A stretch of 64,000 nt of DNA from Microthrixaceae bacterium (GTDB taxonomy: Bacteria; Actinomycetota; Acidimicrobiia; Acidimicrobiales; Poriferisodalaceae): NCBI GenBank assembly GCA_011523825.1, contig WTFX01000009.1, forward strand, positions 600,420 through 664,419. Direction: 5' to 3'. A program made the position numbers and the translations under genes. How positions within the stretch are numbered: the first letter of the stretch is position 1; every line of letters starts with the position of its first letter. Shown piece by piece: positions 32,557 to 54,456 of the stretch. The notes beneath the pieces are model-generated. The model was not told the origin of the DNA. It worked only from the letters and a program-made list of their open reading frames with translations, and did no database searches.

Positions 32557-32640
32557 GTCGGAGTGGCGGAATTGGCAGACGCGCTAGATTAAGGATCTAG
32601 TGCCCGAAAGGGTGTGGGGGTTCAAGTCCCCCCTCCGACA
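32557..32640 (+). tRNA. tRNA-Leu (anticodon AAG)
   Basis: An 84-nt class II tRNA. The acceptor stem is GTCGGAG (32557-32563) with CTCCGAC (32633-32639) and discriminator A. The anticodon stem CTAGA/TCTAG is perfect (32584-32588 and 32596-32600) around loop TTAAGGA, which places AAG at 32591-32593. The variable arm has a CCC-GAAA-GGG hairpin, and the T arm is GGGGG-TTCAAGT-CCCCC. CCA is not encoded. A34 is unusual for bacterial leucine tRNAs and would need deamination to inosine to read CUC. Shifting the loop to give UAA breaks the stem. Confidence 0.93.
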
Positions 32641-32699
32641 CACACCATCAGCGCTCGGCCAGAGCGTCAGCGTCGACACCGAGCCGGAGTCAGGTCGCC

Positions 32700-50686: not shown

Positions 50687-50692
50687 CGGGTG

Positions 50693-51463
50693 ATGAGCGA
50701 CGGGAGCGTGATGCACCTCGGCGTGAGTGCCACCGATCTGGATGGGGCCTCGCTGGCGATCGTGCCGGGAGACCCGGCCCGGGTGGCGCGGATCGCCGAG
50801 ACGATGGCCGAGCCGGTCCACCTGGCTTCGAATAGGGAGTTCACGATCTACCGAGCGTCGATCGACGGCACGCCGGTGGTGGTGTGTTCGACCGGTGTCG
50901 GCGGGCCGTCGACGTCGGTTGCTGTCGAGGAGCTGGGCCAGCTCGGCGTGAGGACGTTCCTGCGGGTTGGCACCACCGGGTCGATCCAGCCCGATCTGCT
51001 GATCGGTCACCTGGTCATCACCCAGGCAGCGGTTCGCCTCGACGGGGCGAGCCGACACTTCGCACCCTTGGAGTACCCGGCCGCCTCCTCCTTCGAGTGC
51101 ACCCGGGCCCTGGTCGATGCAGCGGTCGCCCTCGACGCCCCCCATCAGGTCGGCATCACGGCGTCGTGCGACACCTTCTATCCCGGCCAGGAGCGCTACG
51201 ACACCGTGGCCGGCGACGTCGTGCCGTGGCTGCGGGGCAGCCTGGCCGAGTGGCGCCGCATCGGGGTGCTCAACTACGAGATGGAGTCGGCGACGCTGTT
51301 CACGATGTGTGCGGCGAATGGTTGGCGGGCCGGGTGCGTCGCCGGGGTGATTGCCCAGCGCATTACCTCTGAGGCCGTCGTCGACGAATCCCGCATCGCT
51401 GCCACCGAGGAACGAGCGGTCGCTGTGGTCGTCGAAGCCGCCCGCCGCCTGCTCGCTTCCTGA
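50693..51463 (+). CDS. udp: Uridine phosphorylase-like nucleoside phosphorylase
   Basis: 256 residues of the PNP/UDP family, which cleaves a nucleoside with phosphate. Blocks include LAIVPGDPARVARIAE, CSTGVGGPSTSVAVEEL, FLRVGTTGSIQ, a TASCDTFYPGQERYDT substrate region and NYEMESATLFTM with the ribose-binding Glu. These favour uridine phosphorylase over purine enzymes. ATG 50693 is preferred over GTG 50690 because it lies 6 nt after a TAGGGT box. It stands alone. Confidence 0.88.
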   Translation: MSDGSVMHLGVSATDLDGASLAIVPGDPARVARIAETMAEPVHLASNREFTIYRASIDGTPVVVCSTGVGGPSTSVAVEELGQLGVRTFLRVGTTGSIQPDLLIGHLVITQAAVRLDGASRHFAPLEYPAASSFECTRALVDAAVALDAPHQVGITASCDTFYPGQERYDTVAGDVVPWLRGSLAEWRRIGVLNYEMESATLFTMCAANGWRAGCVAGVIAQRITSEAVVDESRIAATEERAVAVVVEAARRLLAS

Positions 51464-51464
51464 A

Positions 51465-52259
51465 CTAGTGACAGATCAGGCTGACCTCGCCGAGGCCTTC
51501 GATCGTGAACACCAGCTCGTCGCCCGCAGACGGGAATTGGGTGACGATGCTGCTGCCGGTCATCACGAACTGGCCAGCGCGCAGGCTCTGGCCGCGGGAG
51601 TTGAGGTTGTTGGCCAGAAACGCCACGGCCTCGAGCGGATGACCGAGCGCATCTCCCGTACGGCCTTTGCCCGCCGGCTCGCCGTTGAGCGTCAGGCGGG
51701 TCGCTGCGTCGACCAGGTCGACTGAGCGCCATTCGGTGACGGCATCAGCGAGGACAACTGCGGCGTTCCAGGCGTTCTCAGCGACCAGGTCGAACACGTT
51801 TAGACTGCTGTAGTCGGCGTTGCGGTCCTCAACCAGCTCGAACGAGGCATGGCAGGCACTCACCGCGTCCGCAACGCTCTCGCGGGTATGGGGGCCCGCA
51901 TCAGCGGTGAGATCGGCTCCCATTCGCACGGCGACCTCGAACTCCACACCCAAGTGGCGGTGATCGTCGAGCCGCACGACGGCGGGCGAGGCGTGCACCA
52001 CGTGGTCGAACACCGCACCGGCAAGCGGCTCGTCGACGCCGACGAACTCCTGCATCGCCCGAGAAGTGAGGGCAACCTTGTATCCGGCGATCTTGTGGCC
52101 CCGCTCGCCCAGCAGCCGGTGGAAGGCGTCCTGGACCGCGTAGGCCGCGTCGAGCGACCGGTCGGTGGCGAGATCGGCGAATGAACGATGCTGTGCTCGA
52201 GCGTCGAGATCGGCGAGGTACCGGCCTGCCAGATCGTTCGCCTCAGTCTGTTTCAACAT
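51465..52259 (-). CDS. 2-keto-4-pentenoate hydratase-family protein (MhpD/HpaH-like)
   Basis: 264 residues of the fumarylacetoacetase-like fold. KIAGYKVALTSRAMQ near the N-terminus, the metal site E-x-E in GVEFEVAV, ASFELVEDRN and KGRTGDALGHPLEAVAFLANNL are typical of hydratases/decarboxylases of aromatic meta-cleavage pathways. It ends a three-gene reverse operon after a hydroxyacid dehydrogenase and the selenoprotein, with 23 bp from the latter. Confidence 0.9.
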   Translation of the reverse strand: MLKQTEANDLAGRYLADLDARAQHRSFADLATDRSLDAAYAVQDAFHRLLGERGHKIAGYKVALTSRAMQEFVGVDEPLAGAVFDHVVHASPAVVRLDDHRHLGVEFEVAVRMGADLTADAGPHTRESVADAVSACHASFELVEDRNADYSSLNVFDLVAENAWNAAVVLADAVTEWRSVDLVDAATRLTLNGEPAGKGRTGDALGHPLEAVAFLANNLNSRGQSLRAGQFVMTGSSIVTQFPSAGDELVFTIEGLGEVSLICH

Positions 52260-52282: not shown

Positions 52283-53446
52283 TTAACGGCCGGCCCGGGG
52301 CTGCGGCGGCTCGGTGCCGAGGCTCCGTTCGCCGGGCTCGGGCGTGCCGCCGGCGGGAATGTGCTGGAACTCGCGGTTCATTCTGCGGACGGCCGGTGTG
52401 ATGGCCGCGGCGTAGCCGATCAGAGCGAGGAGGACTCGGCGAGCTGGCAGGAGCACGAAGCAGATGGCCCATGCAGCAGCGAATCCGATGAGTCGTGGTT
52501 TCATGGCGGACACACGCGCAGACGGCTTGTCGCCTGGTCGGCCGAGTGGGAATCGCTTCGGCTTGATGAACCAGCCGTGGGCGAACAGCTGAGCGACGAA
52601 GTACGGCCAGAAGGCCTCCGGGGCGTCCAGCGGGGGGTCGGTGTCCCATGGAGCGTCGGTGTCGCTGGCGAGTCCGTCTTGGATGCGCGACCACATATGC
52701 GAGGCGGTGACTCGGCCGGAGGCGCCACCGCGGTTCTGATGGGTGGGGCGACAGTGCCATCGGTACAGCACTCGTCGGTCCGCGGCGAGGGCCAGGATCC
52801 CGGCCTGGAAAATGCCGTTCGGGTGTGACGACCAGTGTCGCTCCAATATTGCGCCGTCGCCGATGTAGAGATCGAACCGGTCAGCCTCGCGGCAGTCGCC
52901 GAGGATCTCGTGGTGGGGGTCGCCGACCGCCTGATAACTCAGTTCCCATGTGTCCTGAGCTTCGCTTGCGAGACTCTGGGGCTCACTGGAGACGGCGAAG
53001 ATCTCGCCTCCCGCAGCCCGGATCTCCTCGACGACCCCCGACTTTTCGAAGCCGCGCAACTCGCGACGGCAGGGAGGTCACCACAGGCCGCGGTAGAACA
53101 CCAAGACGACAAACTTGTGCTTGTCGAGTTGGGCGTTGAGCCACCCGGTGCGCACCCCGATCGGCGGGTCGAGCAGCGGCGGAATCAGTGGATCGTCAAC
53201 GTGGGCGGCCGACACCCGAAAGCCCACTGCCGATCGTTCGACCACGACTTGCTCACGGGCACAGACGTCGCCGTCGCACAGCACCAAGCCCAGCTCGAAG
53301 GACCCTTCTCGCGCTCGTGCCACGGTGTCTTCGGCGTCGATGACTCCGGTGATCTCGTAGCACGACCCATGCGTCGCGTTGATCCACTCGAGAGCGGCCT
53401 CCGAAGCCGCCTGAAGCTCCCTGGGGGGTTCTTCGCTCACGTCCAT
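52283..53446 (-). CDS. Selenocysteine-containing peroxiredoxin/thioredoxin-like membrane protein (in-frame TGA = Sec)
   Basis: One 387-residue protein if the TGA at 53078-53080 (codon 123) is read as selenocysteine. The local sequence is FYRGLW-U-PPCRREL, so Sec replaces the first Cys of the GLWCxxC redox motif of AhpC/TSA-like proteins; C126 is the resolving partner. Homology-like redoxin sequence continues in frame on both sides (KFVVLVFYRG before; GGEIFAVSSEPQSLASEAQDTW and YIGDGAIL after). A SECIS-type hairpin follows the TGA. Residues 1-90 are a separate domain; residues about 318-352 hold two membrane helices, followed by a short tail. GGAGG precedes the ATG by 11 nt. The alternative is a pseudogene with a nonsense mutation. 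selA/selB/selC are not in this window. Confidence 0.82.
53033..53080 (-). promoter_or_regulatory. Bacterial SECIS element
   Basis: Immediately 3' of the UGA the mRNA folds into a two-part stem. The outer helix pairs 53079-53073 (GACCUCC) with 53039-53033 (GGGGGUC), 7 bp with one G-U. The upper helix pairs GCCG (53070-53067) with CGGC (53054-53051). A bulged U (53066) is followed by three pairs, CGC/GCG, and apical loop GAGUU (53062-53058). A bulged U three pairs below a loop containing G and U is the E. coli fdhF SelB-binding arrangement. The bulge is at nucleotide 15 from the U of UGA, against about 17 in fdhF. Confidence 0.8.
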
Positions 53447-53466
53447 TCGTCTCAGTGCCTCCGAGG

Positions 53467-54456
53467 TCAGAAGCCGAGGATCTTGTCGGCGACGACGTAT
53501 TGGAGCGGTTCGCCAGCGAGAAGGCGACGGCAGTTGCCCGCGACGAGCTCGAAGCGACGCTGGTCGATGTCGGGGCCGACCATTGCCACGTGCGGCGTGA
53601 TGAGCACGTTGGGCAGCGTCCAGATCCGGTGCTCGGGCGGCAGCGGCTCCTGGTCGAAGACGTCGAGGCCGGCGCCCGCCAGCTCGCCGGCTTCGAGTGC
53701 GTCGACGAGGTCGTCGAGCACGACGGTCATGCCGCGCCCGATGTTGATGAACACTGCCGTGGGCTTCATCAGCGCGAACTGCGCCCGGCCCAGCATTCCC
53801 TCGGACTCGGCAGTGTGGGGAACGGTCATCACGACCGCGTCGGCCAGCGGCAGCTGCGCCTCGAGCTCATCCGCGCCGAACACAGCGTCGATGGCGCCGC
53901 CGGCAGTGGTCTCGGGTCGGGCGTCGACGGCCACGACTCTCGGTCCCCACGGCTGCAGGTAGCGAGCGGCCTGGTGGGCGACACCACCGGCGCCGATGAA
54001 CAGCACGGTCGAATCTGCGAGGTGCAGGACCGGGGCAAGCCCGCCCCGGTACTCCCGGTTGCGCTGGTCGTGTGCGTAGTGCGGCAGCCCACGGGCGAAG
54101 GCGAGCAGGAACGCCATCACGTGGGTGGCGATGTGGTCGTTGTAGACGCCGCGCATGTTGGTGACGACGACTGGGTGGGCGGCGAGCTCGGGCGTGAAGT
54201 AGCCGAGCGGGGGATTGGCCATCGGGGCCTGCAACCAACGCAGCCTCGGTGCGTGCCAGCCCGCCGGCAGCACGCCATACGCCGCGTCGGCGTCGCTGAG
54301 CTGTTCGAGAATCTCCTCTTCGGTCGCAGCGATGACGACCTCGAGTCCCTCGAATTCGGCCCGGAGCTCGGCCGCCCACCGCTCCAGCACCTCTGGGTGC
54401 GGGATCGCCGGCGCCCCAGGCTGCGCCATCAACACGAACTTGGCAGTTGAACTCAT
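53467..54456 (-). CDS. D-isomer-specific 2-hydroxyacid dehydrogenase
   Basis: 329 residues. NAD-binding loop FIGAGGVAHQAARYL, catalytic Arg in NIGRGMTV, Glu in DVFDQEPLPPEH and His in ITPHVA give the complete R-E-H set. It reduces 2-oxoacids or oxidises D-2-hydroxyacids. First gene of the operon with the selenoprotein (20 bp downstream) and the 2-keto-4-pentenoate hydratase. Substrate unknown. Confidence 0.92.
   Translation of the reverse strand: MSSTAKFVLMAQPGAPAIPHPEVLERWAAELRAEFEGLEVVIAATEEEILEQLSDADAAYGVLPAGWHAPRLRWLQAPMANPPLGYFTPELAAHPVVVTNMRGVYNDHIATHVMAFLLAFARGLPHYAHDQRNREYRGGLAPVLHLADSTVLFIGAGGVAHQAARYLQPWGPRVVAVDARPETTAGGAIDAVFGADELEAQLPLADAVVMTVPHTAESEGMLGRAQFALMKPTAVFINIGRGMTVVLDDLVDALEAGELAGAGLDVFDQEPLPPEHRIWTLPNVLITPHVAMVGPDIDQRRFELVAGNCRRLLAGEPLQYVVADKILGF

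What the first reader, a model, noticed from the sequence alone, without database searches (positions are those of the whole stretch)
52283..53446. New selenoprotein: redoxin with UGA at the redox-active cysteine and a fitting SECIS
Seen directly: two reading frames that look like separate genes are in the same frame, split by a single TGA at 53078-53080. The residues around it read FYRGLW-(TGA)-PPCRREL, so TGA occupies the first Cys of a CxxC redox motif. The mRNA just after the TGA folds into a 7-bp outer helix and an upper helix with a bulged U, three pairs and a GAGUU loop, matching the E. coli fdhF SelB-recognition arrangement. Established: Sec replaces catalytic Cys in peroxiredoxin/thioredoxin-like bacterial selenoproteins. 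Inference: the host decodes Sec and this membrane-anchored redoxin is a selenoenzyme. Automatic annotation would miss it or call two fragments.
Basis: partly seen in the sequence, partly recalled or inferred. Interest (0 to 1): 0.93.

Follow-up and report, generated by a model that had tools for sequence, protein, structure and literature searches.

The report
Membrane-tethered selenocysteine redoxin family
A gene that reads as two separate hypothetical proteins is one gene interrupted by a conserved TGA codon that most likely encodes selenocysteine in the active site of a redoxin predicted to be membrane-anchored, and protein fragments cut at the same point in other bacterial groups suggest a wider selenoprotein family that annotation pipelines miss.

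Summary
The finding holds. The gene lies on the minus strand (53446..52283); one in-frame TGA (53080..53078) is codon 123 of a 387-codon frame, in FYRGLW-(TGA)-PPCRREL. Eleven clean full-length homologues have Cys there. Of 11 congeneric genomes 10 have the gene and 10 of 10 copies keep exactly one TGA, with purifying selection before, just after and beyond it. The genome carries tRNA-Sec, SelA, SelB and SelD. N-terminal halves in databases stop exactly before this residue in 66 of 67 hits, own included; 107 of 120 listed homologues begin just after it. Selenium itself was not measured.

A 6-bp hairpin with loop AGUUG, 16 nt after the TGA, is formed by 10 of 10 orthologues and fits the published bacterial rule.

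The model shows an N-terminal domain with an invariant CxxxxC, a peroxiredoxin-fold core with UPPC, and a C-terminal hydrophobic helix pair. No NCBIfam model reaches its cut-off. Membrane-bound thiol-disulfide or peroxide reduction is inferred.

The parts
52283..53446 (-). whole gene, 387 sense codons if the TGA is read, ATG to TAA
   Evidence: orthologues in 10 of 11 congeneric genomes
53078..53080 (-). in-frame TGA, codon 123, predicted Sec
   Evidence: Cys in 12 of 12 spanning homologues, 11 of them clean; TGA in 10 of 10 orthologues
53069..53080 (-). UPPC redox motif, codons 123-126
   Evidence: C123, P124, P125, C126 columns invariant in the 12 rows of A2, own row with C for U; one congener, L055, has R for the first P
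53051..53067 (-). predicted bacterial SECIS hairpin: 6-bp stem, loop AGUUG at 53061..53057, 16 nt after the TGA
   Evidence: 10 of 10 orthologues meet the published rule; 60 of 60 pair cells standard, one compensatory change, but 160 of 500 shuffles do as well; 76 of 1543 TGAs of the window also pass
53201..53446 (-). N-terminal alpha/beta domain, residues 1-82, cystatin-like in the model; invariant Cys57 (53276-53278) and Cys62 (53261-53263)
52658..53158 (-). peroxiredoxin/thioredoxin-fold core, residues 97-263
52367..52513 (-). predicted membrane helix hairpin, residues 312-360
   Evidence: helices 312-332 and 335-360 in the model; hydropathy peak in this region in 6 of 6 sequences examined, own included
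53458..53462 (-). GGAGG, ribosome-binding-site-like, 11 nt before the ATG
   Evidence: sequence shown

Best explanation
This is one gene whose in-frame TGA at codon 123 most likely encodes selenocysteine, giving a redoxin with a predicted UPPC active site that is predicted to be tethered to the membrane by a C-terminal helix hairpin. How it would work: SelA and SelD would make Sec-tRNA(Sec) (genes shown; activity inferred), and SelB would deliver it to the TGA with the help of the conserved AGUUG hairpin 16 nt downstream (hairpin sequence shown; role inferred). Residue 123 lies at the start of the active-site helix in the model; Sec123 would attack a disulfide or a peroxide, Cys126 would resolve it as a selenenylsulfide, and a cytoplasmic thiol donor would reduce the pair (inferred). 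The invariant Cys57/Cys62 pair of the N-terminal domain may be a second redox pair (inferred, the weakest step).
For: Cys at the position in 12 of 12 spanning homologues, 11 clean. TGA kept in 10 of 10 congeneric copies. Mean pairwise dN/dS 0.211 (codons 1-122), 0.122 (124-135), 0.130 (136-369), against 1.0 or more, or dS of zero, in shifted frames. tRNA-Sec, SelA, SelB, SelD over cut-offs. 66 of 67 database N-terminal halves, own included, end at the residue before codon 123; 107 of 120 listed homologues begin 7-29 residues after it. Hairpin meets the bacterial SECIS rule in 10 of 10 orthologues. Peroxiredoxin-fold core and hydrophobic C-terminal helix pair.
Against: No direct selenium or peptide evidence. 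The hairpin alone is modest: 76 of 1543 TGAs of the window pass the same strict rule, covariation is not above shuffles (160 of 500), and the window's own hairpin passes narrowly (-7.8 kcal/mol against -7.5). TGA-form DNA was seen only within one genus; for other phyla the kind of stop is inferred. 1 of 11 congeneric genomes (G937, about 90% complete) shows no copy. Substrate, reductant and topology are untested, and the gene neighbours give no hint.
Confidence: 0.88

Rival explanations
1. Two separate genes: the TGA is a true stop and the downstream ORF (258 aa from TTG at 53059) starts anew.
For: The mechanical ORF list and public annotation show two pieces. TGA ends 5 of 7 neighbouring ORFs checked.
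Against: The 12 codons between the TGA and the next possible start are under purifying selection in frame (dN/dS 0.122) and match PPCR of the Cys homologues. 11 clean homologues are one chain. The stretch before the TTG shows no GGAGG-like site. The break would fall in the middle of the redoxin domain.
Confidence: 0.03
2. A broken gene (pseudogene) or an assembly error.
For: A single TGA in an otherwise open frame can look like this.
Against: Same TGA in 10 of 10 congeneric copies from separate assemblies, with selection on both sides.
Confidence: 0.01
3. It is a selenoprotein, but one already catalogued under a broad heading such as Prx-like thiol:disulfide oxidoreductase, Prx-like 3 or Redoxin family protein (UxxC).
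For: The reviews list UxxC families under PF00578 and PF08534, and PF00578 matches here. [quoted passage not shown]
Against: No NCBIfam model reaches its cut-off (best 23.9 against 120 bits). Representative sequences and supplements could not be compared here. I saw no description of this architecture in the passages that I read.
Confidence: 0.35

Closest known systems
Prx-like thiol:disulfide oxidoreductase selenoproteins (PF00578, UxxC/UxxU; PMC13188914 Table 1)
   Same: PF00578 domain and a UxxC motif
   Different: Extra N-terminal domain with CxxxxC and a C-terminal predicted membrane hairpin; whether the listed representative has these was not tested
Redoxin family protein (PF08534, UxxC; PMC13188914 Table 1) and GOS Prx-like 3 (PMC2398784 Table)
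   Same: UxxC and weak PF08534 match (26.0 bits, just under the cut-off 26.6)
SelL-related redox protein (NF040769)
   Same: Best NCBIfam match, over the redoxin core (23.9 bits)
   Different: Far below the cut-off of 120 bits; UPPC here, whereas SelL is recalled as UxxU
Cys homologues P0008-P0026 (11 clean full-length proteins; P0023 and P0025 named Saprospiraceae)
   Same: Full-length alignment, 35-44% identity, FYRGFW-C-PPCR
   Different: Cys in place of Sec
Peroxiredoxins (AhpC, Bcp4)
   Different: PxxxTxxC signature (recalled; the T and U/C part is in PMC13188914) absent: V116 and G120 instead

Membership tests
Bacterial selenoprotein | In-frame UGA aligned with a conserved Cys of homologues | tested here: met
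   12 of 12 spanning homologues have Cys, 11 clean
Bacterial selenoprotein | Sec machinery in the same genome | tested here: met
   tRNA-Sec, SelA, SelB, SelD over cut-offs
Bacterial selenoprotein | UGA-containing homologues and selection past the UGA | tested here: met
   10 of 10 congeneric copies; dN/dS 0.12-0.13 past the TGA
Bacterial selenoprotein | bSECIS hairpin after the UGA | tested here: met
   10 of 10 meet the published rule in its strict form; the rule alone passes 4.9% of all TGAs of the window
Bacterial selenoprotein | Selenium in the protein | not testable with these tools
   needs 75Se label or mass spectrometry
Thioredoxin-fold UxxC/CxxC redoxin | UxxC or CxxC at the start of the active-site helix of this fold | tested here: met
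   UPPC, helix 124-136, fold match
Classical peroxiredoxin | PxxxTxxC/U signature | tested here: not met
   V116 and G120 at the P and T positions, invariant in 12 sequences
SelL-related redox protein NF040769 | Score over the curated cut-off | tested here: not met
   23.9 against 120 bits
Listed Prx-like or Redoxin-family UxxC selenoproteins | Full-length similarity to the listed representative | not testable with these tools
   Representatives and supplements not available here
Cystatin fold (N-terminal domain) | Clear structural match | tested here: inconclusive

The most novel reading that the evidence does not exclude
An uncatalogued, widespread family of three-part membrane redoxins that use selenocysteine in several phyla (Actinomycetota, Pseudomonadota, Myxococcota) and cysteine in Bacteroidota, in which an N-terminal cystatin-like domain with its own CxxxxC pair relays electrons to a UPPC centre at the membrane; public databases hold it mostly as pairs of hypothetical proteins cut at the Sec codon.
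Probability: 0.45. Interest if true: 0.68.

Novelty: new variant of a known kind. Interest (0 to 1): 0.58.

Why it matters
If true, it adds a selenoprotein family with a distinct domain arrangement to a list of 119 families and subfamilies (PMC13188914). It would show that a family represented by 66 N-terminal halves (own included) and 107 C-terminal halves in public protein sets is stored as two fragments. It gives matched Sec and Cys versions for testing what selenium contributes in a redoxin predicted to sit at the membrane, and it marks this Acidimicrobiia genus as a user of selenium with at least three probable selenoproteins: this one, a second redoxin and SelD.

Tried and rejected
Rejected: (1) the plus strand of the given range: the gene is on the minus strand. 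(3) TGA as Trp: TGA ends 5 of 7 neighbouring ORFs checked, and spanning homologues have Cys. (4) An operon partner: in the 9 congeneric loci with flanks, tblastn at 1e-10 found neither the 2-hydroxyacid dehydrogenase nor the FAA-hydrolase-like gene that flank it here; at relaxed E only L055 kept a 24-residue stretch like the dehydrogenase's end, about 1 kb upstream. (5) A viral origin: no relative in viral contigs or phages; plasmids gave 2 partial matches covering 33-36% of the query.

Led nowhere: class and phylum searches (395 and 396 genomes, E at most 1e-15) matched only the own genome, so no TGA-form DNA from outside the genus was obtained. The genome-contig scan used exact peptides of this protein, so it could find only close relatives (9 loci, all Acidimicrobiia or within it). 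Solved-structure sequences gave only weak redoxin matches (best E 0.05). Seven paper searches listed nothing that I recognised as this family, but I read few of the listed papers, Haft and Tolstoy 2025 was not held and supplements could not be opened, so absence from print is not established. Papers, what I saw: PMC13188914, abstract, section 5, parts 1-2 of 3 of section 7, passages; PMC9312934, abstract and table section; PMC2398784, passages and section 7; PMC5029168 and PMC12013277, passages; PMC1088965, abstract and outline.

Rows that do not fit: P0188 does not end at the motif. P0080 lacks the region. P0007 has Cys but a disturbed stretch right after it and is not counted as clean. PF00487 FA_desaturase matched 2 of 12 members weakly (best 0.00044) and was set aside as probably the hydrophobic segment.

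Full report
What is there. On the minus strand, 53446..52283, one frame runs from an ATG with a GGAGG 11 nt before it to a TAA, interrupted by one TGA at 53080..53078. The TGA is codon 123 of 387: FYRGLW-(TGA)-PPCRREL. A mechanical ORF list shows two pieces, 122 aa and 258 aa.

Is the TGA a sense codon? Four lines say yes. First, Cys: of the 120 listed homologues of the joined protein (198 found; only the 7999 candidates sharing most words were scored), 12 span the position and all 12 have Cys there (11 cleanly; P0007 is disturbed just after it), 107 begin 7-29 residues after it by alignment, and one (P0080) lacks the region. Second, conservation: of 11 congeneric genomes 10 have the gene, and all 10 copies carry exactly one TGA (in the order search of 298 genomes the 5 congeneric genomes, own included, all did). 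Third, selection: mean pairwise dN/dS over 45 pairs is 0.211 for codons 1-122, 0.122 for codons 124-135 (before the next possible start) and 0.130 for codons 136-369. On the same alignment, shifted frames give 1.76 and 2.09, then dS of zero and 1.02, then 1.78 and 3.21. Pairs are not independent and L057 is cut at codon 246, so these are descriptions rather than tests. Fourth, other bacteria: a search with the 122-aa N-terminal half gave 67 proteins, 66 of which (own included) end exactly at a YRGxW motif, the residue before codon 123; P0188 does not. The length limits of that search favour short proteins but not this end point. A few sources carry names: Gammaproteobacteria (P0140, P0144) and Myxococcota (P0149) among N-terminal halves; Myxococcales or Myxococcota (P0032, P0038, P0067) and Pseudomonadota (P0064, P0077) among C-terminal halves; Saprospiraceae (P0023, P0025) among Cys forms. 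For one Myxococcota genome both halves appear under neighbouring locus tags, MK489_14450 and MK489_14445. DNA of those was not available, so the kind of stop there is inferred.

Can the host decode Sec? The own genome has a tRNA-Sec (66.3 bits, cut-off 47; anticodon tca in ARAGORN), SelA (389.9 bits, cut-off 267.9), SelB (275.2 bits, cut-off 242.25) and SelD (359.8 bits, cut-off 125, one TGA inside). The SelD TGA stands just before ACKLG, the Sec position of SelD as I recall it; the review lists SelD as UxxK.

SECIS. The published bacterial rule (PMC13188914 section 5) asks for a 3-9 nt loop, a 4-16 bp stem, G in the first two loop positions (mostly followed by G or U), 16-37 nt spacing and at most -7.5 kcal/mol. 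The hairpin with loop AGUUG, spacing 16 and 6 bp meets the strict form in 10 of 10 orthologues (the window's own at -7.8, the others -8.6 to -10.5; by the loose form the window's best is a different hairpin). Of 1543 TGAs on both strands of the window, 76 (4.9%) pass the strict and 162 (10.5%) the loose form, so the hairpin alone is modest evidence. In the 10-row alignment 60 of 60 pair cells are standard, with one double change G-C to A-U (L057), two G-U and one U-G; 160 of 500 shuffles do as well, so covariation is only suggestive.

Mechanism. Shown: the codon, its conservation, the Cys counterparts, the Sec genes, the hairpin sequence. Inferred: Sec insertion at codon 123; Sec123 attacks and Cys126 resolves; the hairpin recruits SelB; the anchor holds the core at the inner face of the membrane; Cys57/Cys62 as a second pair. 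Substrate and reductant are unknown, and neighbours give no hint because they change within the genus.

Known or new? Sec-containing redoxins with UxxC are a known kind. The 2026 review counts 119 families or subfamilies, with PF00578 and PF08534 entries that could include this one. Among the 120 listed homologues no full-length record is a close relative of the TGA form, and no name that a source gives says selenoprotein (most have no name). Seven paper searches showed nothing that I recognised as this family, but key supplements and one paper were out of reach. I rate it a new variant of a known kind: a selenoprotein family with a three-part architecture that I did not find listed.

Noticed in passing
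L046 minus strand, TGA at 1678-1680 (own genome G000:C7:39967-40179, outside the window): A second redoxin with an in-frame TGA, FYRSAVW-(TGA)-PPCRTQL. It was matched in 8 of 11 congeneric genomes, own included, and all 12 copies examined, 4 of them from other genera, have the TGA. A GGUCG hairpin 20 nt after the TGA passes the strict SECIS rule in 9 of 12; the own copy L046 is among the 3 that fail.
   Followed up: partly
L048 (own genome G000:C28:31140-32090, minus strand): The genome's selD has one TGA just before ACKLG, probably a Sec-containing SelD; a hairpin 33 nt after it passes the SECIS rule at -12.9 kcal/mol.
   Followed up: partly
L035 (genome G235), minus strand: Another redoxin with an in-frame TGA, FYRGHW-(TGA)-PYCRQQL, in a different family of the order; no hairpin passes the SECIS rule there. 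Whether that genome decodes Sec was not checked.
   Followed up: no
window 51465-52259 and 53467-54456: The FAA-hydrolase-like and 2-hydroxyacid-dehydrogenase genes beside this gene are not found beside it in the congeneric loci, where another long ORF (it looks like an enolase-superfamily protein, recalled, no family search) follows on the other strand in the three loci read (L049, L053, L056); the PNP_UDP_1 gene (50690-51463) is kept about 1.2 kb downstream in 8 of 9 loci.
   Followed up: partly
window 32557-32641: ARAGORN reads a tRNA-Leu with anticodon AAG, unusual for bacteria as I recall; not checked against the congeners.
   Followed up: no
P0007 and P0080 (database proteins): P0007 has Cys at the site followed by a disturbed stretch; P0080 lacks the whole region around it. 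Probably frame errors or pieced gene predictions around the stop.
   Followed up: no
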